Source: a virus. Taken from it: a DNA stretch of 39,795 bases. Location: IMG/VR virus record IMGVR_UViG_3300032285_001914, positions 1 to 39,795 of that record; one strand, 5' to 3'. Under the pieces are notes generated by a model. It was not told the DNA's origin, searched no databases, and worked only from the letters and a program-made list of their open reading frames with translations. Position numbers and translations under genes: made by a program. Positions 1 through 39,795 of this stretch are shown here, one piece after another; the stretch's first letter is position 1; the number at the start of each line of letters is the position of its first letter.

Positions 1-20
1 CTAGGGACGGGGCGGCATTC

Positions 21-55
21 GAGGGGGGCTTCCGACACGCCGAGAAGCCCTCCTC
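21..55 (+). terminator. Hairpin terminator after the junction-spanning operon
   Basis: Bases 21-31 pair with 45-55 over 11 positions with one G-T wobble, leaving a 13-base loop. It lies 17 bases after the stop codon at 2-4 (39674-39676 in the right copy) and before the first promoter, which is where a terminator is expected. There is no T-run, so intrinsic termination would be weak. Confidence 0.5.
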
Positions 56-62
56 ACCCATA

Positions 63-122
63 TTGACTTGACACGGGGTCAAGGGATATGATTTACTTGA
101 TGTATGGGGTTAAACCGACCCC
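63..122 (+). promoter_or_regulatory. Promoter and leader hairpin for the first gene
   Basis: TTGACA (68-73) is followed by 18 bases and TTTACT (92-97), with an extended -10 TG at 89-90. A second overlapping pair, TTGACT (63-68) and TATGAT (87-92), also has 18-base spacing. Just downstream GGGG (106-109) can pair with CCCC (119-122), and a purine-rich ribosome-binding site precedes the ATG at 141. The same arrangement recurs at several other operon starts. Confidence 0.7.
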
Positions 123-140
123 CAATAGAGGGAGTACCGA

Positions 141-749
141 ATGAACAAGCACATCGTCCGCCACGAAAACGGCACAGCAACCAAGCGCAACAGCGCAAAC
201 CGCACCTACCCTTACGCAATCGAAGTTGGACCAGCCAACGTTGAAATGGTAATTGCAGACGACATCGCTCGCGCAGAAGCACGACTAGCCAAGGCAGAAG
301 CCACACTAGCAGCATTCATCGCTAGCGGCAAAAAGGTCACAATCAAGAGTCGCGGATTCCGCTCTTCACACGAATCTGGCGACATGGACCTAGACTACAA
401 AGGCGAAGCAGCCTACCACTACTTCGAACTACGTATTGCAGGCTCGAACTACGCACAGCACTGCAATAGCAAGGGCGAAAGCACACGCGGCTACCCAGTG
501 CAAACAGTGATCTCGTACGAAAAGAACTGCGCCGAGATCGAAGCAGGACTAATCAACGACGTGGAGTCAGCAAAGGCTAACTTAGCCAATAACCGCGCAC
601 AGACACCAGCCGACATCAAGGACGGCGGCTGGGGAATCGTCACATGGTGTGGTCGCCTAGATCTAGCCCAGAAGCAACTGGACAAGTGGTCAGCGATCTA
701 CGCAGTCACAGGCAACGTGGTCCGAATCGTCGAGACCGAAACCCCATAG
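141..749 (+). CDS. Hypothetical early protein, 202 aa
   Basis: The first gene after the genome junction is a stand-alone transcription unit, with its own promoter at 63-97 and a terminator at 757-785. The ATG at 141 follows the ribosome-binding site AGAGGGAG. The N-terminal part is basic. Residues about 45-62 form an Ala/Glu/Lys-rich segment likely to be helical. The C-terminal half has scattered Trp and Tyr. There is no transmembrane segment or recognisable catalytic motif. Codons end mostly in A or C, as in the other left-side genes. The position suggests an early-expressed protein, but I do not recognise a family. Confidence 0.85.
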   Translation: MNKHIVRHENGTATKRNSANRTYPYAIEVGPANVEMVIADDIARAEARLAKAEATLAAFIASGKKVTIKSRGFRSSHESGDMDLDYKGEAAYHYFELRIAGSNYAQHCNSKGESTRGYPVQTVISYEKNCAEIEAGLINDVESAKANLANNRAQTPADIKDGGWGIVTWCGRLDLAQKQLDKWSAIYAVTGNVVRIVETETP

Positions 750-756
750 AGACCGA

Positions 757-785
757 GGGGGCTGGGCTACAACACGCCAGCCCCC
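757..785 (+). terminator. Hairpin terminator
   Basis: GGGGGCTGG (757-765) and CCAGCCCCC (777-785) form a perfect 9-bp stem around an 11-base loop, 7 bases after the stop codon of the first gene. The T-rich tail is weak (TTCTT). The next promoter begins 17 bases further on. Confidence 0.75.
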
Positions 786-802
786 TTCTTCCCCACCCCA
801 AT

Positions 803-855
803 TTGACAGCAAGACAATCTATACATTAAGATAGACCTACAAGGGCAAACAGCCC
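803..855 (+). promoter_or_regulatory. Promoter and leader hairpin of the PurB operon
   Basis: TTGACA (803-808), 18 bases, TAAGAT (827-832). No TG extension is present. GGGC (843-846) and GCCC (852-855) form a small hairpin at the expected start of the transcript, followed by a GAGAGAG-type ribosome-binding site. This promoter should drive the three genes ending with the adenylosuccinate lyase. Confidence 0.65.
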
Positions 856-879
856 ACACTAATAGAGAGAGTGATTAAC

Positions 880-1515
880 ATGGCACGCAAGACAGTACAG
901 GCAGAAATCGAACTACAGAACCAGATCTTCGACGTACAGATTCACATGGACGACATGGTCGACGTAGGCTGGCGCGAGACCCGCGACCGCAACAACCGCA
1001 AAGGCTGGGTAGGCGTGGTCTACAGCGGCAACACAGACTCCGACCTACTTGGTAGCGAAGTTCAACGCCCATGGCTATTCAGCGAGGACGAAGCCAATCC
1101 AGAACTGCTAGCCAAGTACAAGGTTAAGTACGCCGAATGGTACGCCTACAATCGCAAGGATATCGACACCAAGCGCATTATCCTAGCCAAGGCTGTGCAG
1201 GCAGGTCTAATCGACCTCGACATCGAAGACCTCAAGTGGAGCGGCAACGACGGACACTTCAAGACCACCAAGCGCGGCATGGACATCTGGGTCAGCGTAG
1301 CCCCGCTCGGCTACTTCGCTGATCTGGAAATCCAGATCGAAGCCCAGCGCGTGGCTGGAGAAGCAGCCAAGGCTGAATCGATCCGCAAGGCACTGGAGAT
1401 CTTTGGTCTAGCACCAGAGATCGAGAAGATCATGGTCCGAGTTGAAGGCTGGAGTTCACCATTCTGGTACACTCGCCAAGAGATCGCAGCACTAGACGAA
1501 AACGGAGCGATCTAG
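880..1515 (+). CDS. Hypothetical protein, 211 aa
   Basis: I chose the ATG at 880 because the GAGAGAG ribosome-binding site lies at proper distance; an in-frame GTG at 871 sits almost on top of that site. The protein is soluble and mixed in charge, with many Asp/Trp/Lys residues, and has no membrane segment. Residues about 145-175 look like a continuous helix rich in Ala and Glu. It is the first gene of a three-gene transcript that continues with a Cys-rich peptide and PurB. I do not recognise it. A role near nucleotide metabolism is only suggested by the operon. Confidence 0.85.
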   Translation: MARKTVQAEIELQNQIFDVQIHMDDMVDVGWRETRDRNNRKGWVGVVYSGNTDSDLLGSEVQRPWLFSEDEANPELLAKYKVKYAEWYAYNRKDIDTKRIILAKAVQAGLIDLDIEDLKWSGNDGHFKTTKRGMDIWVSVAPLGYFADLEIQIEAQRVAGEAAKAESIRKALEIFGLAPEIEKIMVRVEGWSSPFWYTRQEIAALDENGAI

Positions 1516-1517
1516 CC

Positions 1518-1724
1518 ATGAAATGCACAGATTGTCACGTGGACTGGCACGCTCCAGACAACGAGATAACCGAGGAGCACTGCGAAGTGGGCATCTGTAC
1601 TAAGATGGTGTTCCACTGCTGCAGTTGCCGCAAGGTCTTGAAGGTTCGAATGATTCACAACCGTCAATGCCAGATCGCGCTGTACGAGGATTTCAACGAA
1701 CGAGAGGACCAAGACGATGATTAG
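1518..1724 (+). CDS. Small Cys-rich, probably zinc-binding protein, 68 aa
   Basis: It starts 2 bases after the previous stop and overlaps the start of PurB by 8 bases, so the three genes are translationally linked. The sequence has CTDC near residue 3, then CEVGIC near 22, then CCSC near 34, with several His. This spacing suggests one or two bound zinc ions. The C-terminus is very acidic (EREDQDDD). Such tiny zinc proteins are common in phages of actinobacteria, but the function is unknown. Confidence 0.75.
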   Translation: MKCTDCHVDWHAPDNEITEEHCEVGICTKMVFHCCSCRKVLKVRMIHNRQCQIALYEDFNEREDQDDD

Positions 1725-2997
1725 TCGATACGAAACCCCAGCGATGGCAGAGATCTGGTCGGACCAGCGACGTCTGGACACGTGGGTGAAGGTCGAGTTA
1801 GCCGTGATCAGCGCACAGGTCGAGACAGGCGTGCTACCAGACTCGGCTTGGAAGCAGGCGATCGGGCTGCCTGCGCCAACTCCCGAGCAGGTAGCCGAGC
1901 GGGAACTGATCACACGGCACGACGTGGTGGCGTTCCTCGATGTCTGGGGCGCAGAGTTCGCGCATCTGGGCATGACCAGCAGTGATCTGGTCGAAACCGC
2001 GCAGTCAATCGCGTTGGTGGAAGCCTCGGGCGTGCTGTTGCTAGCACTGGTCGAACTGTCCACCACCTGCCACAAGCATGCGCTCAATCAGTGGGACACG
2101 CACCGAATCGGACGCACCCACGGACAGCACGGCACTATCGACACTTGGGGTCATCGCATGGCGGACTTCACCACCGCACTGGACCGCCAACTCATGCGAC
2201 TAGCGCGCGCCACACAGGACGTCGGAATAGCCAAGTTGAGCGGACCGACAGGCACGTACGCCGACATCTCACGTGAAGTCGAAATGCGAGCCGCATACGA
2301 GTTGCTGTTGACACCAGCGGACGTGGCTAGCCAGATCTTGATGCGCGACCGTCTAATTCACTGGACGCACGTAGTTGCCGAGACAGTTGGAATCTGCGAA
2401 GCCATCGCCACTGAGATCAGACTGATGGCGCACGGCGACGTAGCCGAAGCACACGAATCATTCGGCAGTTCGCAAAAAGGCTCAAGTTCAATGCCGCACA
2501 AGCGAAATCCGATCACTGCTGAACGCATATGCGGTTTGGCTCGGTTAGCGCGTGCGTATTCCGCTGCAGTTGAACCTAGCATCGTCCAGTGGCACGAACG
2601 CGATATCGCGCACTCAAGCGTGGAGCGTGTGGCGTTAGCAGATCTGTGCCACGTGGCGCACTTTGCTCTGATCGAGACTAACCACTTGATCAACGGGCTG
2701 CGACTCAACGCCTATAAGATGCTGGATAAGGTTGTTAGCGATCTGAACTTGAGCAGCCACCGAGTTCTTGCTGCCCTGATGCGCGCGGGCATTCCACGGG
2801 CTGCCGCCCACGATTACGTCCAAGAAGCCACACGGGAGGCTTGGAGGACCGATCTACGGCGCGAAATAGCCCGAACCCTGCCCAAAGCCTTCCCAGATAC
2901 CGTCCTTGACCTCGAAGAGATATTCTCGCTGTCGGGCGCGACGGCGGGCATGGACTGGATTCGCGACGCGCTGGCGTCCGATGGGGATTTGGCTTGA
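1717..2997 (+). CDS. purB: Adenylosuccinate lyase (PurB), phage-encoded
   Basis: This enzyme of the fumarase/aspartase superfamily cleaves fumarate from succinyl-purine nucleotides. At 426 aa it is near the usual length. Conserved parts are all visible: TSSD at residues 87-90, GRTHGQ at 132-137 with the catalytic His135, the mobile signature loop ending in SSSMPHKRNP at 256-265 with its catalytic Ser, and ERDIAHSS at 294-301. It is therefore probably active. Beside a PurZ-type synthetase in the same genome, the likely substrate is the succinylated 2-amino-deoxyadenylate (dSMP), giving 2-amino-dAMP. Known Z-phages are described as relying on host PurB for this step. Codon use matches neighbouring phage genes, so I see no sign of a very recent host transfer. 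Confidence 0.95.
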   Translation: MISRYETPAMAEIWSDQRRLDTWVKVELAVISAQVETGVLPDSAWKQAIGLPAPTPEQVAERELITRHDVVAFLDVWGAEFAHLGMTSSDLVETAQSIALVEASGVLLLALVELSTTCHKHALNQWDTHRIGRTHGQHGTIDTWGHRMADFTTALDRQLMRLARATQDVGIAKLSGPTGTYADISREVEMRAAYELLLTPADVASQILMRDRLIHWTHVVAETVGICEAIATEIRLMAHGDVAEAHESFGSSQKGSSSMPHKRNPITAERICGLARLARAYSAAVEPSIVQWHERDIAHSSVERVALADLCHVAHFALIETNHLINGLRLNAYKMLDKVVSDLNLSSHRVLAALMRAGIPRAAAHDYVQEATREAWRTDLRREIARTLPKAFPDTVLDLEEIFSLSGATAGMDWIRDALASDGDLA

Positions 2998-3049
2998 CAA
3001 TGGGGCAAGTCATGTGTTTTACTTGGAATATGGGGGCGGACACACCGCC
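2994..3049 (+). promoter_or_regulatory. Promoter and leader hairpin
   Basis: TTGACA (2994-2999), 18 bases, TTTACT (3018-3023) with extended TG at 3015-3016. The -35 box overlaps the PurB stop codon. GGCGG (3035-3039) and CCGCC (3045-3049) form a perfect hairpin with a 5-base loop just before a GAGAGAG ribosome-binding site. The box sequences are almost identical to the promoter at 63-97. Confidence 0.7.
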
Positions 3050-3067
3050 AGAGAGAGAGCAATTCAG

Positions 3068-3310
3068 ATGAGCAAGTACAGCAAGCACAGCGGAATGCAA
3101 ATGCTAGACATTACGCATTTTGACAAAGACCTTAAGCGCGTAGATGAAGTAGTTGTTGGCGACGAGATCTTTTTCATTGGCGAATGGCACACAGTTACTA
3201 ACACACAAAAAGTAAGCAGAACTGGATCACGCAGCACGCGACTTACTTTAGGTGTTGCACCATTTCGCTTTGCAAATAGCACTCACGTTTACGTTAAGGC
3301 TGGTGCATAA
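3068..3310 (+). CDS. Hypothetical protein, 80 aa
   Basis: It is the first gene of the transcript made from the promoter at 2994-3023. The ATG at 3068 has the ribosome-binding site GAGAGAGAG; the longer open frame upstream runs through the promoter and is not likely to be translated. The middle is beta-rich (VVVGDEIFFIGEWHTV), reminiscent of small SH3-like or Hint-like beta proteins, but I cannot assign a family. It has no Cys and no membrane segment. Its stop overlaps the next start as TAATG. Confidence 0.7.
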   Translation: MSKYSKHSGMQMLDITHFDKDLKRVDEVVVGDEIFFIGEWHTVTNTQKVSRTGSRSTRLTLGVAPFRFANSTHVYVKAGA

Positions 3311-3486
3311 TGTACGCACCGATCACTTGCAAGTGTGGTGGCGGCATCAGCAACACGCCAGCGAAAATCAAAGCCCCTCCTATGAAGTTGGCACTCGAGC
3401 ATCTGCAGAGATGCGAACCCGAAAATAACTGGGACTTTGCTGTAACAAGCAAAGGTCAGTGGCATTTAGCAAAGGGGGTGAAATAA
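3310..3486 (+). CDS. Small Cys-containing protein, 58 aa
   Basis: The start ATG shares one base with the preceding stop (TAATG), typical of translational coupling. The product has TCKCGGG near its N-terminus and one further Cys around residue 35 (LQRCE), a possible partial zinc site. No other motif is visible. The support is the tight coupling to both neighbours and codon use like that of the surrounding genes. Confidence 0.6.
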   Translation: MYAPITCKCGGGISNTPAKIKAPPMKLALEHLQRCEPENNWDFAVTSKGQWHLAKGVK

Positions 3487-3488
3487 CA

Positions 3489-3773
3489 ATGTACGACAAC
3501 GCATACAAAGTTGATTCGAATGACCACGCTGGACAACAGGCGATCACCCGAATCAAATTGAAAGGCGTCGGAGAAGTTGTAGCAACCTACCCGTCAGCCG
3601 ATGGACAACGGACGATCTACGCGCTAGCAATACCAGCGTCCGTCTGGCTACTACTCGACGTTCGCAGCGACTTCGACAACTGGACCACCGCCATCTATTA
3701 CAGCGAGGGCGAATGGCGCAGTGACAAGCAAGAAGCCAAGAAGCAAGCACTGATGATCGGAGCAGGCAAATGA
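3489..3773 (+). CDS. Hypothetical protein, 94 aa
   Basis: I chose the ATG at 3489, which lies 2 bases after the upstream stop and follows a GGGGGTG purine stretch; an in-frame start at 3459 would overlap the upstream gene. The protein appears to be an alpha/beta domain with a short hydrophobic beta stretch (YALAIPASVWLLLDV) at about residues 44-58. This is too polar at its edges to be a sure membrane helix. It overlaps the next gene by 4 bases (ATGA). The function is unknown. Confidence 0.7.
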   Translation: MYDNAYKVDSNDHAGQQAITRIKLKGVGEVVATYPSADGQRTIYALAIPASVWLLLDVRSDFDNWTTAIYYSEGEWRSDKQEAKKQALMIGAGK

Positions 3774-9087: not shown

Positions 9088-9165
9088 ATGACAGATCTGG
9101 AAGAACTGGACTGGGAACGAGGCGGCGACCCTTGTGCGCACGTTGTGAGAGTGTGGACATCGTGA
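9088..9165 (+). CDS. Possible small protein, 25 aa
   Basis: A short open frame begins at ATG 9088 with a good ribosome-binding site (GAAGG, 7 bases upstream). The peptide is acidic, with one Cys in GGDPCAHVV. A 16-aa frame at 8998-9048 and a hairpin (9057-9061 with 9068-9072) lie just before it. Coding is uncertain because the region is otherwise regulatory in appearance. Confidence 0.3.
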   Translation: MTDLEELDWERGGDPCAHVVRVWTS

Positions 9166-9401
9166 CACAGACCGTGGCACGGGGTGAGACACAGTTGGAA
9201 CTTGACTACGAGGCTGATTGTGTCTCGGATTCGAACCTATTGGAGCACATATCGTGCCACAGAGGGGTTGAGACACAACAGAACCCGAAACGACGGGCTA
9301 AAAAAACTGGTGTCTCGGTGTCTCATACAAAAAAATAAAATAAGTTACATGCGTGCGCGCGCGCGCCCGAACAGCCCCGTTCACTCCGAAAGGTGAGACA
9401 C
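9166..9401. other. Putative replication origin with TGAGACACA iterons
   Basis: This non-coding stretch between PrimPol and DNA polymerase holds five copies of TGAGACAC or its complement GTGTCTCA, some with one change: 9185-9193 (+), 9220-9227 (-), 9269-9277 (+), 9310-9317 (-) and 9318-9325 (-). A sixth copy at 9394-9402 (+) runs into the polymerase start codon. GTGGCACG near 9174 is matched in inverse by CGTGCCAC near 9253. An A-rich tract (9328-9346) is followed by 20 bases of perfectly alternating purine and pyrimidine (9347-9366, mostly GC repeats). Iterons, a flexible tract and flanking replication genes suggest an origin. Operator sites controlling the polymerase are the alternative. Confidence 0.6.
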
Positions 9402-11243
9402 ATGAAAGTCCTAAAACCAAGCGAAATCCTGCCAGATCTGGAAGGGCTGTACGTAGCCGTAGACACCGAAACCAGCGGACTGTTCGTAGATGATGGCGCG
9501 CGAGTCTCCATTGTTAGTGTGGCGTGGCGCGAAAGTGGACAGCCAAGGCTCGGAGCAGGCATAGTCACCTACGCATTCCCGTTCGACCAAGGACGCTACG
9601 CCGAAAAGACAGGCACAACCGAAAGCGCATTCGACGTCGACTACAACCTTGATCAGACTGAATGGGAGTTCTTACTCCAGTGGCTAACCAAGCACAACCT
9701 GATCATGCACAACGCCAAATTCGACCTGCACATGCTCCGCACAGGCACACGGCACTGGACAGGCGTGAACCTAGTCGACCAAGTCATCTGGGACACCCAA
9801 GTAACACACAACCTGTTCGAACCGCTACTGACCAGCAGCCTCAAGCCCACTAGCGCAAGGTTATTTGGGGAAGATGTGGTGCAAGAAAGCCGCGATATCC
9901 AGAACGCCCTACGCAAACAAGGCACAGGACTAACCAAACGCTACGATCTGGTCGACTGGTCAATCGTCGGACCGTACGCAGCACAAGACACCGCCCTGAC
10001 CCTACGGCTGTACGAATGGCAGCAACGCAGGCTCGAAACCGACGACCAGCACCTCGGAGTTCTCGCCCAGCGCGAAGTCGATCTCATGAAAGTGTTGTAC
10101 AAAATGGAAACCCGAGGCATCGGATTCGACGCCGAACGAGCCGAACAATCCGCCAGCAAACTGCGCGCCCTCAAGATCAAACTGCAAGAACAACTGCCGT
10201 TCAAGCCCACACTGCCAGCCGCCAAACAATACTACTTCGGAGATCTGGGGCTGATTCCTAGCAAAGTTGGCGCAAGTGGAGCACCAAGCCTCGACAACGA
10301 GACCATTAAGAAACTAGCCAAAAAGAACACCCCACACGCCGAGACCTTCCTGCGATGGACCGAAGTGAAAAGCGCACTAGAGAAATGGTACGACAACTGG
10401 GGATCGATGGTCGGACCAGATGGACGGCTGCGCACCTCGTTCCGACAGACTAAAGTGGTCAGCGGTCGCTTGAGTGTCGAACGTGTGCAACTGCAAGCAA
10501 TCCCGCACGACTACCAACTGAACCAATTGTTTGGTGAAGGAGTCGAAGGTGTGCGAGCGTTCTTCCAGCCAAAAGAAGGACACCAACTCTGGGAAATCGA
10601 CATCAGTCAAGCCGAGATCAGAGTCGCAACTGCTGTGGCGCACTGCCAGAACATGCGCGACCGACTGGAAGCAGGACAAGATGCACACGACGCTACAACA
10701 CAGTTGGTGTTCGGAATTGAAAAAGACGACCCTGAATGGGACAAGTACCGATCAGTGGGTAAACGGTTGACCTTTGGCATGCTGTACGGCGCAGGAGTTC
10801 GCACAACCCGCGAACAGATCAAACTGTACACAGGTGTTGACGCTAGTGAAGGTCAAGTACGCGAATGGGTAGAAGCGTACCGAACTGCGTTCCCCGAGTT
10901 CGTGCAAGCAGCAAGGTACGCAGACAACGCTGTGCAAAAACGCGGATATGTTAGACTAATAACAGGGCGGCTACGGCATTGGGGTCTTGATGAACAAGGT
11001 CACAAAGCATTCAACGCTGTTATACAAGGTGGCGTAGCGGAAACTATGAAGATCGCGATGATAGAAGTCGAGACACGGTTTCCAGACATCTTGCTCTTGC
11101 AGATTCACGACTCGATGGTCATCGAAGTTCCTGATGCCGTAGCGCAGTCCGTTGTCATTCAAGTGCGTGACACGTTGACTCAGATCTTCGAGTCGATGTT
11201 CAACATCGAGTTCAAGGCAGACTACAAACAATGGGCAAAATGA
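9402..11243 (+). CDS. Family A DNA polymerase with 3'-5' exonuclease (DpoZ-like)
   Basis: The 613-aa protein is the phage replicase, with the layout of a Klenow fragment and no 5'-3' nuclease domain. Proofreading motifs are intact: AVDTETSG (Asp21, Glu23), NAKFD (Asp108) and YAAQD (Asp196). Polymerase motifs are intact too: motif A with Asp400 (EIDISQAEIR), motif B with Arg450, Lys454, Phe458 and Tyr462 (GKRLTFGMLYG), and motif C IHD with Asp570. In Z-genome siphoviruses a polymerase of this type and size (DpoZ) accompanies PurZ and favours 2-aminoadenine. That preference is inferred here from context. The ATG at 9402 has the strong site AAAGGTGAG. Confidence 0.93.
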   Translation: MKVLKPSEILPDLEGLYVAVDTETSGLFVDDGARVSIVSVAWRESGQPRLGAGIVTYAFPFDQGRYAEKTGTTESAFDVDYNLDQTEWEFLLQWLTKHNLIMHNAKFDLHMLRTGTRHWTGVNLVDQVIWDTQVTHNLFEPLLTSSLKPTSARLFGEDVVQESRDIQNALRKQGTGLTKRYDLVDWSIVGPYAAQDTALTLRLYEWQQRRLETDDQHLGVLAQREVDLMKVLYKMETRGIGFDAERAEQSASKLRALKIKLQEQLPFKPTLPAAKQYYFGDLGLIPSKVGASGAPSLDNETIKKLAKKNTPHAETFLRWTEVKSALEKWYDNWGSMVGPDGRLRTSFRQTKVVSGRLSVERVQLQAIPHDYQLNQLFGEGVEGVRAFFQPKEGHQLWEIDISQAEIRVATAVAHCQNMRDRLEAGQDAHDATTQLVFGIEKDDPEWDKYRSVGKRLTFGMLYGAGVRTTREQIKLYTGVDASEGQVREWVEAYRTAFPEFVQAARYADNAVQKRGYVRLITGRLRHWGLDEQGHKAFNAVIQGGVAETMKIAMIEVETRFPDILLLQIHDSMVIEVPDAVAQSVVIQVRDTLTQIFESMFNIEFKADYKQWAK

Positions 11244-11669: not shown

Positions 11670-11725
11670 TTGACAAGGTGACAAGATCTGTGGTAAGATA
11701 GTTATATAAGGGCAGGGAAGCCCTT
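11670..11725 (+). promoter_or_regulatory. Promoter and leader hairpin of the methyltransferase/PurZ block
   Basis: TTGACA (11670-11675), 18 bases, TAAGAT (11694-11699) with extended TG at 11691-11692. AAGGGC (11708-11713) and GCCCTT (11720-11725) form a perfect 6-bp leader hairpin, followed by the ribosome-binding site AAAGGAGAG. An AGATCT palindrome lies in the spacer at 11684-11689. This should start the transcript that includes the methyltransferase and perhaps PurZ. Confidence 0.75.
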
Positions 11726-12443: not shown

Positions 12444-13364
12444 ATGAGTAAAGCAACAATAATAGTCGGTGACGTTAGGACTGCGTTGCAGTCTGTTCCA
12501 GATCGATCGATTCAAACGTGTGTTACGTCTCCCCCTTATTGGGGGCTTCGTGATTACGGCACGAACGATCAAATCGGATTAGAAGAAACGCCAGATGAGT
12601 ATGTTGATCAAATGGTACAAGTATTTAAAGAGGTGTGGCGCGTATTAAAAGACGACGGCACGCTTTGGTTAAATGTCGGTGATAGTTACGCAGGAAATAT
12701 GAGTAGAGCAAGTAACAACGGTCGCGCTGGCTACGGAACTGAACGCGAAGGCGTATTTAATCGAATACCCGACGGGCTAAAAGCAAAAGACTTAGTTGGT
12801 ATCCCGTGGCGGCTAGCGTTTGCGCTGCAGGCTGATGGATGGTACTTAAGACAAGACATTATTTGGGCTAAGCCTAATCCAATGCCTGAATCAGTCACGG
12901 ACAGATGTACTAAATCGCACGAATATATTTTTCTTATGAGCAAGTCTCGCAAGTATTTTTACGATCACAAATCCATTAAAGAACCAGCCCGAGATTGGGG
13001 AGTACGAGACAGAACGGACGGCAAGTATCACAATGAAGGAACTGGACTAACGCCTCATTCTGGATTAACCAAATCGTACGAAACCAAAAACAAGCGCGAT
13101 GTTTGGTATGTTCCAACCAAATCCTATAAAGGCGCGCATTTTGCTGTAATGCCTGAGGCGTTGGTTGAGCCCTGCATTCTTGCTGGCTCGTCCGTTGGTG
13201 ACACAGTGCTAGACCCTTTTATGGGTTCTGGAACTGTGGGTGTGGTTGCTCTCCGACACGGTAGAGAGTTTGTGGGCACGGAATTAAATCCAGATTACGC
13301 CGATCTTGCAGCAAGCCGAATTTCTAACGATGCACCGTTATTAAACGAAGTGGAGTCAAAATGA
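12444..13364 (+). CDS. DNA methyltransferase, beta class (TSPPY; N4-cytosine or N6-adenine)
   Basis: In this 306-aa S-adenosylmethionine-dependent DNA methyltransferase the catalytic motif TSPPYW is at residues 28-33. The cofactor-binding motif follows at the C-terminus (DPFMGSGT, 257-264, then FVGTELNPDYA), the order of the beta class. SPPY is usual in N4-cytosine enzymes but also occurs in some N6-adenine enzymes. The middle (about 85-230) should be the target recognition region. No restriction nuclease is nearby, so it probably modifies phage DNA for protection or signalling. If the genome carries 2-aminoadenine, cytosine is the simpler target. AGATCT, which is unusually frequent in this genome, is a candidate site. 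Confidence 0.92.
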   Translation: MSKATIIVGDVRTALQSVPDRSIQTCVTSPPYWGLRDYGTNDQIGLEETPDEYVDQMVQVFKEVWRVLKDDGTLWLNVGDSYAGNMSRASNNGRAGYGTEREGVFNRIPDGLKAKDLVGIPWRLAFALQADGWYLRQDIIWAKPNPMPESVTDRCTKSHEYIFLMSKSRKYFYDHKSIKEPARDWGVRDRTDGKYHNEGTGLTPHSGLTKSYETKNKRDVWYVPTKSYKGAHFAVMPEALVEPCILAGSSVGDTVLDPFMGSGTVGVVALRHGREFVGTELNPDYADLAASRISNDAPLLNEVESK

Positions 13365-13625: not shown

Positions 13626-14663
13626 GTGGGCAGAGTAAGCGTAGTAGTCGGAGGACAATTCGGCTCAGAAGGCAAAGGCGCAGTAGCAGGCTACCTAAGC
13701 ACCAATAAAGACGAGAACGTCATCGGCGTTCGAGTCGCAGGACCAAACGCAGGACACACAGTGTACGGCGACGGACCAGACGGCGAAATCGGCACATATG
13801 CGTGGAAACTGCGCACAGTGCCAGTCACAGCCGTCACCAACCCAGACAGCAAAATCGTCATAGCCGCAGGCTCAGAAATCGAGTTCGCAGTGCTAGACGA
13901 CGAACTGGACCGACTAGACCGCGCAGGCTACAACGGGACAGAGCGCATTATCATCGACGATCAAGCAACCGTGCTAGAAGATCGACACAAGCAAGTGGAG
14001 CAAGACGCAGATCTGACCGCCTTACTCGGCTCAACCAGCAAAGGCATCGGCGCAGCCCGCGCAGATCGCCTACTCCGAGGAGCGTCCCTAAATGGGGGTG
14101 GCGTTGATACCGCCGCACTACTGGCGCAAGAACTCAAAGACTACAACACCCACGTGATCATCGAAGGCACACAAGGCTACGGACTAGGGCTGCACGCAGG
14201 CTACTACCCATTCTGCACTTCCAGCGACTGCCGAGCCATTGACTTCCTAGCCATGGCAGGCGTGAACCCGTGGCAATACGGAGCAGCCGACGTAGACGTC
14301 TGGGTAGTCGCACGCACCTACCCGATTCGCGTGGCAGGAAACAGCGGTCCGTTGTCAAACGAGACCACATGGGACAAACTGGGCTTCGAACCAGAACGAA
14401 CCACAGTCACCAACAAGATCAGACGCGTAGGCGAATGGGACAGTGAACTCGTACGCGAAGCCGTCCGAGCCAACGGCGGCGCACCGACCGTCAAACTAGC
14501 CCTAACCATGTTCGACTACGTGTTCCCCGAACTCGCAGGTGCTACAATAGTCCCACAAGATCAGAAATACTGGGACTACATCGAAAAGATCGAAAAAGAG
14601 ACAGGAGCGAAGGTTGCGTTAGTTGGCACAAGCCCAACAACAATGGCGTACACCTACCACTAA
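13626..14663 (+). CDS. purZ: PurZ: adenylosuccinate synthetase-like, 2-aminoadenine pathway
   Basis: At 345 aa it is shorter than bacterial PurA (about 430). It should join aspartate to dGMP to make dSMP, the first step toward 2-amino-dATP. The phosphate-binding loop reads GGQFGSEGKG (residues 9-18): Ser14 stands where PurA has a catalytic Asp (WGDEGKGK), the change I recall as diagnostic of PurZ because it makes room for the 2-amino group. GPNAGHTV (39-46), EGTQGYGLGLH (180-190) and TYPIRVAGNSGP (231-242) match other family regions. The GTG start has GGAAGGAAA upstream. It heads a run of nucleotide-metabolism genes, and PurB lies elsewhere in the genome. Confidence 0.93.
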   Translation: MGRVSVVVGGQFGSEGKGAVAGYLSTNKDENVIGVRVAGPNAGHTVYGDGPDGEIGTYAWKLRTVPVTAVTNPDSKIVIAAGSEIEFAVLDDELDRLDRAGYNGTERIIIDDQATVLEDRHKQVEQDADLTALLGSTSKGIGAARADRLLRGASLNGGGVDTAALLAQELKDYNTHVIIEGTQGYGLGLHAGYYPFCTSSDCRAIDFLAMAGVNPWQYGAADVDVWVVARTYPIRVAGNSGPLSNETTWDKLGFEPERTTVTNKIRRVGEWDSELVREAVRANGGAPTVKLALTMFDYVFPELAGATIVPQDQKYWDYIEKIEKETGAKVALVGTSPTTMAYTYH

Positions 14664-31537: not shown

Positions 31538-34500
31538 TGCGCGATTTGCCTTACGTGGGTGTGTCTCTCGCACATCAAGTCAAGCCAAATGACTACTGGA
31601 ACTTGTTAACCAAAGTTAAGTCTGGTGTGGTTGCTCCGTCTAATCCGTTCAATTTCGGTACGGGGTTTTCTTACGCGAACGTGCCGTCGTCTTTCGGTTA
31701 CTCAATTGGCGGACGAGTTTACTCATTTGATTGTGGACGCGGACGAACTTACGAATTGGGCAGACTTGAGGCTGGTGAGGCGTCTTTTCGCGTAGACAAT
31801 TCCGATGGTTTGTTTGATCCGAACAACACGTCAAGCCCTCTTTACGGCAACGTCGCTCCGTACCGCCCCGTTCAGATCATGGCTGCTTACACCGCTCCAG
31901 CCAATCGCACAGACGCAAATAACGTGGTGTCTGGCAACATTCTAAACGACACCAACCACGTTAATTCGTTAAATCCTTACAGTTTAACTTCAAGTACGAG
32001 CGTTGGGCTTTCTGACTACAACGCGTACCGCATTCGAGTGTGTGCTAAAGACAGTAATTTTGAAGGTGCTACTCCGTACAACTGGTACAGTCCTAACACT
32101 AACGGCAACGTTTTTCCAAGCATTGTCACGTCGCAGTCTCATTCTGGTACGTCTTCGTTGCAGTTTGGTTACGGTACTTATGGTTGTTCAACTGCCGCTT
32201 TACAAGTGCCTGTAGTGGCTGGTAAGACGATCACGATCAGTTATTGGTATTTGAACACGGGTGCGTCTACAGCGGCTCACGTTTGCAAGATCTACGAATC
32301 GCCACTGATCGATTGGTCGCGTCCTACCGCTGCTGCCACTGTTACTTCAGCAAAAGCAAACACTGGTACGTGGTTGCGTAACACGGTAACTTTGACGCCT
32401 AGTACAAACTTTGTCGTTATTTCTATGGAAATGCAGAACACCACCAACATCGTTAACGATTTTACGTACATTGACGACGTGATGGTTGAGTTTGGACCGT
32501 CTGCGTCGGCTAGTGTGGTGCAAACAGGTCCAACGCTTTACCCGTTGTGGACTGGTCACGTTGAACGCTACCCACAGTCGTACCAAGCACCTAACCGTGG
32601 TGAGGCTAATCTTGTTGCGACAGACGTTTTTGCGTCGTTAAGTCAGGTTAGCATGGAGACTTTGTATGACGCTTATTGTAACTCTCAGATATCGCCGTCT
32701 GGTACTGCTTCTTGTTACTATTATTACCCGATGTCTGAGCCTGCTGGGTCTACAGCGGCTTATAACAAAACGTCGTACTCTCAAAACCCGTTAGTTGCAA
32801 CTTCGATCAACGCAGTGGGCAACGGAATTACTTTTGGTCAAAACGCAGCAAACACCAAAGATCTGATCGGCATGGGCGGAACAACCGTTCCATACTTCTA
32901 TAATTCGGGTTTATTTGGGGCTGGCAACGTTCCGTACGGAACTTATTTGGGCGTCAACAACATAACTGACATCAATTTCAATGCAAGTACCACCATTTCG
33001 TTTTGGGTTTACCTTGGCGACGACCCGACTGATATTGCTCTTTCTACCGTTTTTTCGCTTGGCGATAAGTCTGGAGTTAAATGGCTGTCGGTGCGGGTGG
33101 GTACGGGTGGCATTCTCAGTATCGATTGGGTGAAAAACGGAACTGCTACGAACGTTACTACAGGCAGTTGGGATTTTGGTTACTTTAACTTTGTCACTCT
33201 TACATTTAGCGGCGGTCAAGTGTCTGCCGCGTCGATATCCACTTTACGTGGCGGCGGTTCAACCACTAACTTGTCGATCACTTCAGTGAGTCCGCTATTT
33301 ACTAGTCCAAGCCAAATGATCGCTGGAACTGCAAGTAACTTTGGCGTTAGTTCAGTTGGACACCTTTCTGTGTTCCAAAATCCGCCTAATACGTTCAGTT
33401 CGTCGCATTTGTTTAACTTGGGCAAATACGGACAGATCACTAGCAGTACAACTGCCGAGTCTACGGGCGTTCGTTTCCGAAACACGCTGTTCAACATCAC
33501 TGGTTTTCAGTTCACTCCGTTTATCTATGATAAGGGAGTGTCTCAAATGCAGGCACTCAATCCGAGCGGAGAGTCTGTGGCGGATTACGTTCAAGACGTG
33601 TCTGACACCGAAGGCGGCTCGTGGTACATAGATTCAAGTGGTTATATCGTTTTCCAAGATCGAGCAGACAGGCAACAGAACTTTGCTCCAGCGGCGATTT
33701 TTGGTGACAACGTTGCAGCGGGCGAGATCCCTTATGATGCGATCAATTTGTCGATTGATTACGACCCTCAATTTGTCTATAACGAGGTTGAGATCGTAAG
33801 AGCAAATGGAGCGACGAACTCGCTTAAAGACATCAACAGCATTAAACAGTACTTCCGACGCACGTTCAGTCGGACTATTTACAATACTAGCGATACGGAA
33901 GCCCGCGACGCTGGCTATTTCATTTTGTCGCGTTCAAAAGACCCGCACCCACGACCTATTCAAATTGTGTTGACTCCTAGTAGCAACACAGCCATTTGGA
34001 ACACGGCTCTTGGCATGGAAATCGATACGTTGATCAGGGTGCGATTAAAGCCGTTAAACACTGCGGCTGCGCAGATTTCGATTGACTGTTTTGTGGAGAA
34101 AGTTGATCACAGTTTTGACGCACAGTCGGGTGATTGGAAAACGACTCTTACGATCACTCCAGCGATCACCAACTACTGGAATATGAGTCCGTTGCGTCTT
34201 ACTACAAGTGGCGCAAACGGTTCTGGTTTTGTTCTTCCTAGATCTGGCTCTGCAACTCCGATTGACGCCAACACTTTTATTGGCGGTTATTCTCATCTTT
34301 TGCAGTACGCAGTCAGTGGAACATATTATCGTGCTGTGACTATTCCAAGTCAAACGACTCTGTCAGGCAGTACTGCGTTTAACGTCAATGCGTTTTCAAC
34401 ACAAACTGTCGGAACTAACTCATCTGGTCCTTTGAACGGTTACAAGAGCACGGCTGCGTTTACTCCTTCGGCTTCATCTTTAGCGACTGACAGCACGTCG

Positions 34501-36218: not shown

Positions 36219-36520
36219 TGGCAACACCAGAAAAGAAGACACCAGCAAAAAAGACAGCCGCTAAAGCACCCGTGGTCGCTCCCGTGGTCTCGGAAGTACC
36301 TTCCGTGGGCTTGAAGGACCGTGTTTTGCAGTGGCTCGCTGTACACCCGATCGGCACAGCAGTTAAGGTGGGCGTTGGAGCAGGGCTCGCATGGGTTCTT
36401 AACAACATCGCATCTTTAAATCTCAATCCGACCGAAACTGCAGCCGTGATCATGGTGGTCAACATCGCTATCAATGCGCTGAACCCGCAGGACACACGCT
36501 ACGGGGTAGGCAGCAACTAA
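36218..36520 (+). CDS. Holin
   Basis: The 100-aa protein has a Lys/Ala/Pro-rich cytoplasmic N-terminus of about 35 residues and then two hydrophobic segments (AVKVGVGAGLAWVLNNIA at about 48-65 and AAVIMVVNIAINAL at about 75-88). Size, topology and position just before the lysin gene fit a small two-helix holin that makes lesions in the membrane at lysis time. No conserved motif exists for this class, so the call rests on topology and context. Confidence 0.7.
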   Translation: MATPEKKTPAKKTAAKAPVVAPVVSEVPSVGLKDRVLQWLAVHPIGTAVKVGVGAGLAWVLNNIASLNLNPTETAAVIMVVNIAINALNPQDTRYGVGSN

Positions 36521-36930
36521 TGACACAATTAACTGGAGTTCAGGCTTACGCCAACATGCGCAAGCACATGGTCAATCACGAATCAGGCTTTCAAGGTCGC
36601 TGTCACGCTACCTGCCAAAATGCGTGGGGTTTGCCCGTGAAATACGCCAGCGCAATTGACGCTTGGAATCACGTGCCTAAGGCTGCTCGCCACGCTGACC
36701 CAAGCAAAGCCCCGATCGGTGCTCCGCATTTCTACAGTGGCGGCAAGTATGGTCACGTGGTTTTGCAATCAGACAAGAAGGGCGTAGTCATCTCCACTGA
36801 CGCGCCAACCACGAACTACGTCGGCGAAGTTGCAACTAATTGGTTTGTTCAACACTGGGGCAAGACGTACCTCGGTTGGGCTAGCGTCTACAACGACGTG
36901 GCACTTCAACTGACGGACATGCCGAAGTAA
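36520..36930 (+). CDS. Endolysin-like cysteine peptidase (CHAP/NlpC-type)
   Basis: The 136-aa protein begins on the last base of the holin stop. Likely active-site residues are a Cys in RCHATCQNAWG (Cys28 or Cys32) and His79 in GGKYGHVVLQ, preceded by PIGAPHFYSGG. This Cys then GAPHFY then GHV order is that of CHAP/NlpC-like peptidoglycan peptidases. It has no separate cell-wall binding domain and no signal peptide, so it needs the holin for export. It would cut peptide bonds in the cell wall. Confidence 0.75.
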   Translation: MTQLTGVQAYANMRKHMVNHESGFQGRCHATCQNAWGLPVKYASAIDAWNHVPKAARHADPSKAPIGAPHFYSGGKYGHVVLQSDKKGVVISTDAPTTNYVGEVATNWFVQHWGKTYLGWASVYNDVALQLTDMPK

Positions 36931-36934
36931 CTTT

Positions 36935-37129
36935 ATGCCAGCGGCAGGCTGCGCGGTAGGCAAGTTGCGCAAGAAACTGAGCACAGACGACGCCAAGGCG
37001 TTAGATCGTTTGCTTGAATCGGAACTATCTGCGCGAGCGGTGATCACTGTGATCGCCGAACATCTGAATGCCGACATCGGTCCTCAGACGGTTGCCAAAC
37101 ACCGAGGAAGGGTGTGTAGGTGTGAGTAA
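36935..37129 (+). CDS. Small helix-turn-helix protein, 64 aa
   Basis: The sequence KLRKKLSTDDAKALDRLLESELSARAVITVIAEHLNAD is helical, followed by IGPQTVAKHRGRVCRC, a recognition-helix pattern that ends with a Cys pair. Actinophages often have such a protein before a metallophosphoesterase gene. It overlaps the next gene by 8 bases. It probably binds DNA. There is no strong Shine-Dalgarno, so it may be translated by coupling to the lysin gene. Confidence 0.7.
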   Translation: MPAAGCAVGKLRKKLSTDDAKALDRLLESELSARAVITVIAEHLNADIGPQTVAKHRGRVCRCE

Positions 37130-38324
37130 GTTTAGCGACAGGGTTGAGGAGTTACTTCAACCAGCGGAGCGTCGGGCGTTGCCTGTAGCGGTCTCCGCAA
37201 GCAGATCAGATGCCACCCACGAACCCAATGGCTGGACCGCTGGTGTGGTGGTGGACGGTAGCCGTGGCACATTAACCACTAAACCGTCAGACGGACCTGT
37301 CCAGAATTGGGACGACGAACTCAGGGCTTGGGGTTTCGACCCTGCTCTCTACGAGGTGGTCGAACCCGTGCGCATGTCCACGTGGCAGACGTACGACGAA
37401 CGCCAACTGTGGGCGTACAAGGCTCAAATCCGCACCCGATTGTCTGGTCTGGCTGCGTCCGAGATCGAAGCGATGACTGAACCCGTGAAGCGTGACCGCC
37501 GCAAGGCTCGTCCACGTCCAACGGGTTCATCTGCGTTTGTTGTTCCGATTGGTGACTGGCAGGTTGGAAAGCCTGACGGCGATGGACTGGATGGCACGGT
37601 TGCTCGCATTGAGGCTTCTATCGTTGCTGTGGTGGAGCGTGCAGAGTTCTTGCGCGACAGCGGCTACGAACTTGGGCATCTGGTGGTCACTTCCGCTGGA
37701 GATCTGGGCGAAGGCTGCGACGGTCACTACGCCCAGCAGACTTTCGGTGTTGAGGTGGACCGACGTGATCAGAACAAGATCATTCGCCGCATGGCTCGCA
37801 ACGCATTAATGGAGTGGTCTCCGCTGTTTGATCGCGTGACGGTCGCTGCAGTTGGCGGTAATCATGGCGAGAATAGGCGTGGTGGCAAATCGTTCACTAG
37901 TACCAATGACAACGATGATGTAGCGGTGTGGGAAGCGGTTGCTGAGACTTTGGCTGTGCGCGACGATTTATACGGTCATGTGGAGTGGCTTTTGCCTCGC
38001 GATGAACTTTCGGTCTCGTTTGCTGTTGGCGACAGGATTGTTGGTCTTGCTCATGGTCATCAAGCCAGATCTGGCGATATTGGTAAGTGGTGGCAGGGTC
38101 AGGCTCTTGGCAACCGTGCTGTTGCTGACGCTGATCTGCTGATCACTGGGCATTTTCACCATTTTCGCATGATTGAAGTGACGGACAATCGCTGGTGGCT
38201 TCAAGTGCCTGCGCAGGATGGCGGGTCTGACTGGTTCTCTGAGATGAGCGGTAATTCGAACTCAACTGGTCAGGTGACGTTCGTTTTGGACGAATCTGGC
38301 TGGCGTGAACTCGCAATTTTGTAA
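37122..38324 (+). CDS. Metallophosphoesterase (calcineurin-like)
   Basis: The 400-aa protein has the metal-binding motifs of calcineurin-like enzymes: PIGDWQVGK with Asp145, SAGDLGEG with Asp194, GGNHGEN with Asn247 and His248, GLAHGHQ with His311 and His313, and TGHFHHF with His344 and His346. The aspect IGDWQ in place of the usual DxH is common in the phage group. The first 135 residues have no known fold. It may be a DNA nuclease of the Mre11/SbcD type or a nucleotide phosphatase. I chose the GTG at 37122 after GAGGAAGG. Confidence 0.88.
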   Translation: MSKFSDRVEELLQPAERRALPVAVSASRSDATHEPNGWTAGVVVDGSRGTLTTKPSDGPVQNWDDELRAWGFDPALYEVVEPVRMSTWQTYDERQLWAYKAQIRTRLSGLAASEIEAMTEPVKRDRRKARPRPTGSSAFVVPIGDWQVGKPDGDGLDGTVARIEASIVAVVERAEFLRDSGYELGHLVVTSAGDLGEGCDGHYAQQTFGVEVDRRDQNKIIRRMARNALMEWSPLFDRVTVAAVGGNHGENRRGGKSFTSTNDNDDVAVWEAVAETLAVRDDLYGHVEWLLPRDELSVSFAVGDRIVGLAHGHQARSGDIGKWWQGQALGNRAVADADLLITGHFHHFRMIEVTDNRWWLQVPAQDGGSDWFSEMSGNSNSTGQVTFVLDESGWRELAIL

Positions 38325-38325
38325 G

Positions 38326-38354
38326 TTGACAGCGAGGCTAGCCTCTGGTTAACT
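38326..38354 (+). promoter_or_regulatory. Promoter of the XRE regulator with internal operator
   Basis: TTGACA (38326-38331), 17 bases, TTAACT (38349-38354), extended TG at 38346-38347. The spacer contains the 12-base perfect palindrome GAGGCTAGCCTC (38334-38345). A protein bound there would cover both promoter boxes, so this looks like an autoregulated promoter. The ribosome-binding site AAAGGAG and ATG 38378 follow. Confidence 0.75.
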
Positions 38355-38377
38355 TGTGGTAACGAAAGGAGTCAGTA

Positions 38378-38614
38378 ATGGCTGTAACGAACGAGGAGTT
38401 CGCCGAGCGCGTAGGCGTGCATTTCACTATGGCGTCGCGAATGCGTAATGGCAACCGACTCCCAAGCGTGAAGACGATGATCAGCATTTCGAATGCGTTC
38501 GATCTTAAGATGGACGACCTGTCCGACGCGTATGCGGCTGGTCCAGATCAGTTCGGGGAGTTCTTGCGAGAGAATATCTTCGACTCTATTCCCAATCCGA
38601 GTCTAGTAGCCTAG
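38378..38614 (+). CDS. XRE-family helix-turn-helix regulator, 78 aa
   Basis: The N-terminal 55 residues match the Cro/CI fold: NEEFAERVGVHFTMASRMRNG as helices 2 and 3 with the recognition helix, then RLPSVKTMISISNAFDLKMDDL. The protein is short, with no peptidase or dimerisation domain beyond a 20-residue tail, so it is more like Cro than a full repressor. Its own promoter holds a palindrome of the right size for a dimer. It stands at the boundary between the late genes and the small-gene operon and may control early transcription. Confidence 0.85.
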   Translation: MAVTNEEFAERVGVHFTMASRMRNGNRLPSVKTMISISNAFDLKMDDLSDAYAAGPDQFGEFLRENIFDSIPNPSLVA

Positions 38615-38630
38615 TCTCACCCCTTAAGCC

Positions 38631-38702
38631 GCCCGTCGGCGTAAGTTCCGAGCAGTTCCCACTCTCTCCTGCTTGTTGAGCGACACGCCGACGGGCTTTT
38701 TT
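38631..38702 (+). terminator. Strong terminator or small RNA hairpin
   Basis: GCCCGTCGGCGT (38631-38642) and ACGCCGACGGGC (38685-38696) pair perfectly over 12 bp and are followed by six T. This is the only hairpin in the window with a proper T-run. The 42-base loop is long for a plain terminator and contains no clear second stem. It lies between the XRE gene and the next promoter. Confidence 0.8.
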
Positions 38703-38714
38703 GTGTCCCCCGAC

Positions 38715-38768
38715 TTGACTCAGTGGCATGGGGTGTGCTTTACTTGGTGTATGGGCAGGGAACGCCCA
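38715..38768 (+). promoter_or_regulatory. Promoter and leader hairpin of the junction-spanning operon
   Basis: TTGACT (38715-38720), 18 bases, TTTACT (38739-38744) with extended TG at 38736-38737. TGGGC (38752-38756) and GCCCA (38764-38768) form the leader hairpin, followed by AAGGAGAG. The layout is the same as in the promoters at 63, 2994 and 17051. Confidence 0.72.
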
Positions 38769-38785
38769 CCGACCAAGGAGAGACA

Positions 38786-39088
38786 ATGACTAGTTACTTT
38801 AGCGATTCAGTCACCAACGACACCATCACGCAAGCAGGCAAGCCAAGCATCGACGATCTAGACACGATGATCGACTGGCTGTACATGATGTGGGAATGTG
38901 GCGCACTTCCAGACAGCAGAGACGAGATCAGTGGCGATATTGCTGGTCCAGCCCTGCGCTTGATCAATATGCTATGCACAACCGTACAGGCACGCGAGAA
39001 ATCAGCACGTATCACGGCAGCCAAGAAAGCCTACGCAGCCGAGCACGGCATTCCATTTAACCAAGTGCGCTACGGCGCAAGCAAATAG
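38786..39088 (+). CDS. Hypothetical protein, 100 aa
   Basis: It starts at ATG 38786 after AAGGAGAGA. The open frame upstream runs through the promoter. The sequence is helical and acidic at first (SIDDLDTMIDWLYMMWECG) and ends in a basic stretch (REKSARITAAKKAYAAEHG) that could bind DNA. It is the first gene of a four-gene small operon that ends at the contig junction. I do not recognise it. Confidence 0.75.
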   Translation: MTSYFSDSVTNDTITQAGKPSIDDLDTMIDWLYMMWECGALPDSRDEISGDIAGPALRLINMLCTTVQAREKSARITAAKKAYAAEHGIPFNQVRYGASK

Positions 39089-39099
39089 AGGAGAGAATC

Positions 39100-39387
39100 A
39101 TGGCACACGCAACACGCGCAGGAGTCCTTAAAGCCACCAATTACAGCAAGGTGGAGTGGGCAATCGGTCACAAGCGCGACTTCAAGCACAGCACGATGAC
39201 AGGCTATTGGGTCAAGTCAGTTGACACCTACTACATAGCGTCATACGGCAGAGTTATCGGATTTTACGACGCATCAGCAGATCGCTGGTACGCACTGGAT
39301 ATGGGATTCAGTGTGACAACAACGCGCCATCAAAATCTGATGCGCAAGGTGATCAAGGAAGGCAGCGAAGAATGCTTGAGTTACTAG
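39100..39387 (+). CDS. Hypothetical protein, 95 aa
   Basis: AGGAGAGAA precedes the ATG. The product is basic and rich in Tyr, Trp and His, with a repeated beta-hairpin appearance (YWVKSVDTYYIASYGRVIGFYD; ADRWYALDMGFSVTTT). It has no Cys and no membrane segment. It overlaps the following small gene by 16 bases. The function is unknown. Confidence 0.75.
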   Translation: MAHATRAGVLKATNYSKVEWAIGHKRDFKHSTMTGYWVKSVDTYYIASYGRVIGFYDASADRWYALDMGFSVTTTRHQNLMRKVIKEGSEECLSY

Positions 39388-39494
39388 AACGACTGGGCCA
39401 GTGGTGGTACTACTACCGCTTCGGCAAGGAGACGCCGATCTACTACGAACTCGCTCGCAAATACGGATTCGACCCACTGGACGGGGGTGAATAG
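39372..39494 (+). CDS. Small aromatic-rich protein, 40 aa
   Basis: A 40-codon frame starts inside the end of the previous gene. It contains GQWWYYYRFG and PIYYELARKYGFDP, an unusually high share of Trp and Tyr. The next start follows its stop by 2 bases. Packing and codon use support it, but its role cannot be guessed. Confidence 0.55.
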   Translation: MLELLERLGQWWYYYRFGKETPIYYELARKYGFDPLDGGE

Positions 39495-39496
39495 AG

Positions 39497-39676
39497 ATGC
39501 ATTTGACACTCAATGGAATCGTGCTGATCATCTGGCTGATAGCGTGCCTGATGTTCTGGCGCATGGGCTTCACCGCTGGCAAGAACGCGGTCCGTCGCTA
39601 CAACCGCCGAGAGCGCGGAATCGAGGCGGCTCAAGCCCGTCACCCGTCCATCACGTACGCCCAGAAGTTCCGCTAG
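39497..39676 (+). CDS. Small membrane protein spanning the genome junction, 59 aa
   Basis: Residues 5-21 (LNGIVLIIWLIACLMFW) form one membrane helix, followed by a strongly basic region (RRYNRRERGIE) that should stay in the cytoplasm. The stop codon TAG lies in the terminal repeat, and the same TAG is at bases 2-4 of the window. The hairpin just downstream probably ends the transcript. Function unknown. Confidence 0.65.
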   Translation: MHLTLNGIVLIIWLIACLMFWRMGFTAGKNAVRRYNRRERGIEAAQARHPSITYAQKFR

Positions 39677-39795
39677 GGACGGGGCGGCATTCGAGGGGGG
39701 CTTCCGACACGCCGAGAAGCCCTCCTCACCCATATTGACTTGACACGGGGTCAAGGGATATGATTTACTTGATGTATGGGGTTAAACCGACCCCC
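39673..39795. repeat. Terminal direct repeat, right copy
   Basis: Identical to bases 1-123, including the terminator hairpin (39693-39727) and the promoter for the first gene. The upstream gene's stop codon is inside the repeat, and the promoter in it reads into the gene at 141 when the ends are joined. The window is therefore a complete circular map or has short terminal redundancy. Confidence 0.95.

What the first reader, a model, noticed from the sequence alone, without database searches (positions are those of the whole stretch)
1..39795. The palindrome AGATCT is strongly over-represented
By hand I count about 44 AGATCT sites (for example 923, 1751, 9093, 11684, 17576, 34240, 38067); about 10 would be expected by chance in 39.8 kb. 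They occur in all three codon phases (Q-I-F at 923, T-D-L at 9093, R-S at 34240) and inside a promoter spacer at 11684, so codon choice alone does not explain them. Most phages avoid palindromes cut by host enzymes; this one seems to collect one.
Basis: seen in the sequence. Interest (0 to 1): 0.7.

Follow-up and report, generated by a model that had tools for sequence, protein, structure and literature searches.

The report
Phage favours GATC that relatives ban
This virus of bacteria uses the DNA word GATC (above all as AGATCT) far more often than its genes require, although its closest relatives have purged the same word almost completely and it purges about nine other restriction-enzyme words itself; the likeliest reason is that it carries a DNA-marking (methyltransferase) gene that the relatives lack.

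Summary
The count is right: 45 AGATCT sites (reader: about 44), against 6.7 (order-1 Markov) and 13-21 (codon shuffles). But AGATCT is not the unit. GATC itself is doubled (275 vs 136) and is the most over-used of about 131 tetranucleotides against a constrained codon shuffle (1.54x; next 1.27x). It is enriched in all three codon phases, mostly with A or T flanks, while GGATC is avoided. The peak is CAGATCTG (15 vs 3.8).

The same genome has 0 AGCT, 0 CCGG, 2 GGCC, 0 GGNNCC, 0 RGCGCY and 2 CCWGG. The window is a complete 2-aminoadenine (Z-genome type) phage with PurZ, DpoZ and PurB. Its closest relatives, also PurZ+, use GATC at 2 of 777 and 0 of 471 synonymously possible places; the window uses 255 of 773.

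The gene that fits is an orphan DNA methyltransferase (12444-13364), absent from both sisters. The most likely reading is a switch from GATC avoidance to GATC protected by self-methylation. Excess above neutrality and AGATCT spacing (no two sites within 150 bp, P about 0.0002) hint that GATC is also favoured for an unknown reason. MTase specificity is unproven; distant homologues do not predict GATC status.

The parts
1..39795 (.). whole phage genome: 45 AGATCT and 275 GATC sites, spread over all genes; AGATCT at 659, 923, 1397, 1751, 2333, 2640, 3165, 5559, 5800, 7526, 8176, 8503, 9093, 9434, 10241, 11182, 11684, 12048, 14009, 14985, 15448, 16820, 17015, 17576, 17849, 18759, 19882, 20224, 21078, 22117, 22651, 23896, 26311, 26987, 27143, 27331, 28436, 30051, 30834, 32288, 32859, 34240, 34890, 37700, 38067
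12444..13364 (+). orphan DNA methyltransferase (beta-class N6/N4 family, TSPPYW and DPFMGSGT motifs), candidate GATC methylase
   Evidence: PF01555 E 6e-56; PADLOC Type II MTase E 3e-112; absent from sisters G001 and G002
13626..14663 (+). PurZ, 2-aminoadenylosuccinate synthetase of the Z-genome pathway (GGQFGSEGKG active site)
   Evidence: NF038379 336.6 bits, cut-off 300; sequence
9393..11243 (+). DpoZ, aminoadenine-incorporating DNA polymerase
   Evidence: NF038381 354.2 bits, cut-off 350
1717..2997 (+). phage PurB, adenylosuccinate lyase (next step after PurZ)
   Evidence: TIGR00928 337.5 bits, cut-off 326.2
2639..2646 (.). CAGATCTG, strongest palindromic octamer (15 copies: 2639, 7525, 8175, 8502, 9092, 9433, 14008, 16819, 17575, 18758, 19881, 22116, 26986, 34889, 38066)
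   Evidence: 15 vs 3.8 expected; next palindromic octamers 5
11670..11699 (+). promoter-like TTGACA-18-TAAGAT whose spacer holds AGATCT 11684

Best explanation
The genome has been shaped word by word by restriction. Its lineage meets hosts with many restriction enzymes and has removed nearly every AGCT, CCGG, GGCC, GGNNCC, RGCGCY, CCWGG and GGATC (shown). GATC belongs to the words its nearest relatives remove (shown). This phage acquired an orphan DNA methyltransferase (gene presence shown, acquisition inferred). The enzyme probably methylates GATC, well with A or T flanks and badly after G (inferred), so GATC became safe and returned by synonymous mutation across the whole genome (pattern shown, cause inferred). 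Because GATC ends up above the neutral level, the methylated site is probably also favoured, for example as a self mark or binding site (inferred, weak). AGATCT and CAGATCTG are the best-favoured contexts of this one word.
For: GATC is the only word fully purged in sisters G001, G002 and G003 and abundant here: 275/136 vs 2/116, 0/71 and 1/32; the rest of the purged set is largely shared. 0 of 177 and 0 of 88 aligned GATC sites are GATC in G001 and G002, while a median 4-mer is kept in 32-38% of cases. Synonymous use: 255/773 here, 2/777 and 0/471 in the sisters. The MTase and its small neighbours are the clear gene-content difference between DpoZ and PurZ. Among the longer relatives (G000-G008 apart from the fragment G003), the three with GATC (G000, G004, G006) carry an MTase-like gene and the five without GATC (G001, G002, G005, G007, G008) do not. 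The two closest MTases (L080 80%, L085 77% identity) sit in phages with GATC 1.44x and 1.58x by the order-1 model. Asp codon choice flips to GAT when AGATC would result (41 GAT:23 GAC, against 227:547 overall), and Ile after NAG is 61 ATC:12 ATT:3 ATA.
Against: The specificity of the MTase is not known. Homologues at 50-70% identity are found in phages with no GATC at all, e.g. L078 and L079 (0 sites), L079 with 79% identity in residues 170-232. G004 and G006 carry MTase-like genes of other subfamilies, and the G004 match is only 35 residues. L080 and L085 are near neutral against a codon shuffle (1.07, 1.04). Phages with known GATC methylases (P1, phiCh1) show no GATC excess in the same test (1.03, 1.08), so protection alone should give about 1.0 and not 1.4-1.5. 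The MTase bears the SPPY motif often seen in N4-cytosine enzymes (own knowledge).
Confidence: 0.5

Rival explanations
1. Host change without methylation: this phage now infects hosts that do not restrict GATC, so avoidance was relaxed, and codon-context habits of the new host raise GATC. The MTase has another target.
For: Family members G009 and G011 (fragments) have GATC at about the neutral level without a found MTase. G001, G002 and the window also differ in GCCGC, RAATTY and CTCGAG, as expected if host ranges differ. MTase homologues do not predict GATC.
Against: Relaxation predicts about 1.0; the window is 1.36-1.54 against codon shuffles. Ordinary phages and an 80-kb piece of the one near candidate host MAG lie at 1.01-1.15. 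The host itself is not known.
Confidence: 0.25
2. AGATCT/GATC sites are a positively selected, distributed functional element (methyl mark, protein binding or genome organisation), independent of restriction history.
For: CAGATCTG 15 vs 3.8. AGATCT shows the strongest short-range repulsion of 264 words with similar counts: no gap under 156 bp, 6.5-6.9 gaps under 150 bp expected, P about 0.0002. Enriched in all codon phases. GATC spacing is even: var/mean 0.40 in 2-kb bins, rank 2 of 122 words.
Against: Relatives with GATC excess (G004, G010) show no AGATCT preference and only weak or no evenness. AGAACT is second in the same spacing test without an obvious function. The spacing test was chosen after seeing the data. 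G001 lives without any AGATCT.
Confidence: 0.15
3. Side effect of purging other words: codons pushed out of forbidden words pile up in permitted ones, GATC among them.
For: Escape words do exist: AGCC is 1.3-1.7x in AGCT-avoiding relatives, and AATC 1.5-1.6x and GACC 1.3x in GATC-avoiding sisters.
Against: The excess stays or grows when the purged words are forbidden in the null (275 vs 179). No purged word is one step from GATC; its one-step neighbours are mildly reduced together rather than one being missing. Relatives with the same purges and neutral GATC exist (G006, G009).
Confidence: 0.07
4. Chance, base composition or codon usage.
For: Given GATC and its flanks, AGATCT is only 1.3x.
Against: z 9-13 against codon shuffles. 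Among 1136 palindrome-by-phage cases GATC in this genome is third by z; the 99th percentile ratio is 1.30.
Confidence: 0.01

Closest known systems
Restriction-site avoidance in phages (Rusinov et al. 2018, PMC6286503)
   Same: Near-total loss of orthodox Type II words (AGCT, GGCC, CCGG, GGNNCC, CCWGG); GATC was under-represented in all 46 phages whose hosts carry the Type IIM GATC enzyme.
   Different: Here one word switches from zero in sisters to clear excess. The passages read in that paper (found by term search) do not report a switch of that kind.
Phages with their own GATC methylases (P1 Dam; Natrialba phage phiCh1; lactococcal 936 phages, PMC4190342)
   Same: Orphan phage MTase that can protect GATC.
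   Different: P1 and phiCh1 show no GATC excess in the test used here (1.03, 1.08); beta-class enzyme here, not the D12 Dam family.
Z-genome (2-aminoadenine) phages: S-2L, phiVC8, SH-Ab 15497, Arthrobacter phage Wayne, Streptomyces phage Hiyaa
   Same: PurZ and DpoZ above curated cut-offs; PurB-like gene as in Hiyaa.
   Different: No DatZ or MazZ model matched among the ORFs scanned; Z status cannot explain GATC, since the GATC-free sisters G001 and G002 also have PurZ.
phiX174 GATC avoidance and mismatch repair (PMC5014478)
   Same: GATC number as a selected genome-wide trait of a phage.
   Different: Opposite sign. The candidate hosts by portal relatives are Actinomycetota, which lack Dam-directed repair (own knowledge).

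Membership tests
Z-genome (2-aminoadenine) phage | PurZ with the catalytic Asp of PurA replaced | tested here: met
   NF038379 336.6 bits over cut-off 300; GGQFGSEGKG, Ser where PurA has Asp (sequence; role of the residue from own knowledge)
Z-genome (2-aminoadenine) phage | DpoZ polymerase | tested here: met
   NF038381 354.2 over cut-off 350
Z-genome (2-aminoadenine) phage | dATP removal (DatZ) or MazZ | tested here: inconclusive
   no such model among the ORFs scanned; not every small ORF was scanned
Z-genome (2-aminoadenine) phage | A replaced by Z in virion DNA | not testable with these tools
   needs virion DNA
restriction-site avoidance | Type II words depleted beyond codon and composition models | tested here: met
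   AGCT 0/137, GGNNCC 0/82, GGCC 2/60, CCGG 0/59, RGCGCY 0/50, GGATC 11/50
restriction-site avoidance | host encodes the matching enzymes | not tested
   host unknown; portal relatives in genomes are mostly Actinomycetota
phage-encoded GATC methyltransferase | DNA methyltransferase fold and motifs | tested here: met
   PF01555 E 6e-56; PDB hits 2zie, CcrM
phage-encoded GATC methyltransferase | specificity for GATC | tested here: inconclusive
   genome-level correlation in close relatives for, distant homologues against
Dam family (D12 class) | match to PF02086 or PF05869 | tested here: not met
   no match in the window
phage-encoded R-M system | restriction nuclease beside the MTase | tested here: not met
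   neighbouring ORFs have no nuclease domain by Pfam or PADLOC

The most novel reading that the evidence does not exclude
GATC, with AGATCT/CAGATCTG as its best form, is positively selected as an evenly spread, phage-methylated self mark or binding site: a phage that turned a forbidden restriction word into a working genome-wide signal.
Probability: 0.2. Interest if true: 0.75.

Novelty: new variant of a known kind. Interest (0 to 1): 0.5.

Why it matters
Phages are known to lose restriction words. Here sister phages with the same proteins and about the same number of opportunities differ completely in one word: 0.3% and 0% against 33% of possible places used. The main matching gene difference is one methyltransferase. 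It also suggests a cheap way to guess the target of orphan phage methyltransferases: look for the word that flips between sisters.

Tried and rejected
AGATCT as an independent unit: rejected as primary, since CAGATC scores higher and GATC explains most of it. MTase family as a general GATC predictor: 80 IMG/VR loci with homologues show every GATC state. GGATC avoidance as a fingerprint of this MTase: seen in the window, Smarc2, L085 and L076, but not in L080, and also in G006 with another MTase; left open. Escape from other purged words: constrained shuffles reject it. Host codon habit: the one candidate host MAG is 1.08, but the host is not established. Even GATC spacing as a family trait: not clearly repeated in G004, G006 or G010. 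Regulatory use only: only 3 of 45 AGATCT sites are intergenic in my gene calls. Vsr-like or nuclease partner beside the MTase: no domain found. No close isolate or near-identical phage in the annotated collection. A viral-contig scan with PurZ alone found nothing.

Full report
Observation. Expectations range from 6.7 (order-1 Markov) through 12.7 and 15.8 (codon shuffles) to 20.7 (codon shuffle that keeps neighbouring bases and also keeps the purged words out). Only a maximal-order model, which already contains AGATC and GATCT, comes close (34.6). The excess is real, but most of it is an excess of GATC: 275 against 136, or 179-207 in the context-keeping codon nulls that keep some purged words out. 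GATC is the most over-used of 131 tetranucleotide classes against the constrained null (1.54x, next 1.27x). It is enriched in all three codon phases (83/71, 18/6.8, 162/89). Flanks matter: A-GATC 198/116, T-GATC 176/109, C-GATC 165/132, while GGATC plus GATCC is 11/50. The best context is CAGATC (83 vs 40); the palindromic octamer CAGATCTG occurs 15 times (3.8 expected), three times as often as any other palindromic octamer.

What else the word counts show. The same genome has no AGCT (about 150 expected), no CCGG, 2 GGCC, no GGNNCC, no RGCGCY and 2 CCWGG, and few GGATC, GGATG and RAATTY. These look like Type II recognition words, so the phage is under strong restriction pressure and does avoid palindromes; GATC is the exception.

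What the genome is. A complete phage genome with a 123-bp terminal repeat. PurZ (NF038379) and DpoZ (NF038381) exceed curated cut-offs, and a PurB lyase does so as well, so it very probably makes 2-aminoadenine DNA. Terminase, portal, head and tape-measure genes are present. A beta-class DNA methyltransferase lies at 12444-13364 with no nuclease beside it.

Comparison with relatives. G001 (41.6 kb) and G002 (25.7 kb) share PurZ, DpoZ and most genes at about 60-88% amino-acid identity. They avoid GATC almost completely (2/116, 0/71). At aligned positions none of 177 and none of 88 window GATC sites is GATC in them, whereas a median tetramer is kept in 32-38% of cases; the sister forms are AATC, GACC and GATT, about half of them synonymous. 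The proteins offer nearly the same opportunities: 255 of 773 used here, 2 of 777 and 0 of 471 there. GATC is the only word that flips completely; GCCGC differs partly. Wider relatives are bimodal: G003, G005, G007 and G008 are near zero; G006, G009 and G011 near neutral; G004 and G010 in excess.

Candidate cause. The gene difference that fits is the methyltransferase, absent from both sisters, in a variable slot between DpoZ and PurZ where G001 has an XF1762-family-like ORF. Among the longer relatives (G000-G008 apart from the fragment G003), the three with GATC carry an MTase-like gene and the five without do not, but the three genes are of different subfamilies, so this is correlation. The two closest homologues of the window MTase are in GATC-tolerant phages, but several more distant ones are in GATC-free phages, one of them (L079) similar in residues 170-232. 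Specificity is therefore inferred, not shown.

Excess above neutral. Ordinary phages, two phages with GATC methylases and a candidate host MAG all give 1.01-1.15 in the same codon-shuffle test; the 99th percentile over 1136 palindrome-by-phage cases is 1.30, and the three highest z values are GATC in G010, G004 and this window. Codon choice shows a pull: Asp is GAT in 41 of 64 cases between A and C, against 29% overall, and Ile after NAG is ATC in 61 of 76. AGATCT sites also keep apart: minimum gap 156 bp, none of 6.5 expected gaps under 150 bp, P about 0.0002 even when drawn from the places where the proteins allow the word; first of 264 words. I chose that test after seeing the data, and AGAACT comes second, so I treat it as a hint.

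Verdict. Observation confirmed; interpretation partly supported. Best explanation: a switch from restriction avoidance to methylation-protected GATC, with an unexplained preference on top. Confidence 0.5. The hosts are unknown; portal relatives in genomes are mostly Actinomycetota.

Noticed in passing
window 1-39795: Total or near-total loss of AGCT, CCGG, GGCC, GGNNCC, RGCGCY and CCWGG, plus strong loss of GGATC, GGATG and RAATTY: at least nine words in one 40-kb phage.
   Followed up: partly
window 1717-2997: Phage-encoded PurB (adenylosuccinate lyase) above the curated cut-off, shared with sisters and with Streptomyces phage Hiyaa; it may complete the Z pathway without the host.
   Followed up: partly
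G001:C1 about 31828-32490 (L057:11828-12490): In the slot where the window has its MTase, sister G001 has an ORF resembling the XF1762 family (E 5e-7, below cut-off); possibly another DNA-modification gene.
   Followed up: partly
L109: GATC is depleted (15 vs 48), yet 9 of the 15 are CGATCG: looks like protection of CGATCG only.
   Followed up: no
L041 and L040: GGATCC is strongly over-represented (18 vs 2.6 and 8 vs 1.2 by codon shuffle) in portal relatives in which no MTase was found on the searched contigs.
   Followed up: no
L039 (record G013): C5 methyltransferase; GGCC, CCGG and CCAGG are above order-1 expectation where most relatives have almost none, reminiscent of multispecific phage methylases such as M.SPR (own knowledge).
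   Followed up: partly
L165 (Serratia phage Smarc2): GGATC is purged (6 vs 65) while GATC is not; the phage carries a homologue of the window MTase, and the window shows the same combination.
   Followed up: partly
window, AGAACT/AGTTCT (43 sites): Second most evenly spaced word of 264 (minimum gap 141 bp), mildly in excess, unexplained.
   Followed up: no
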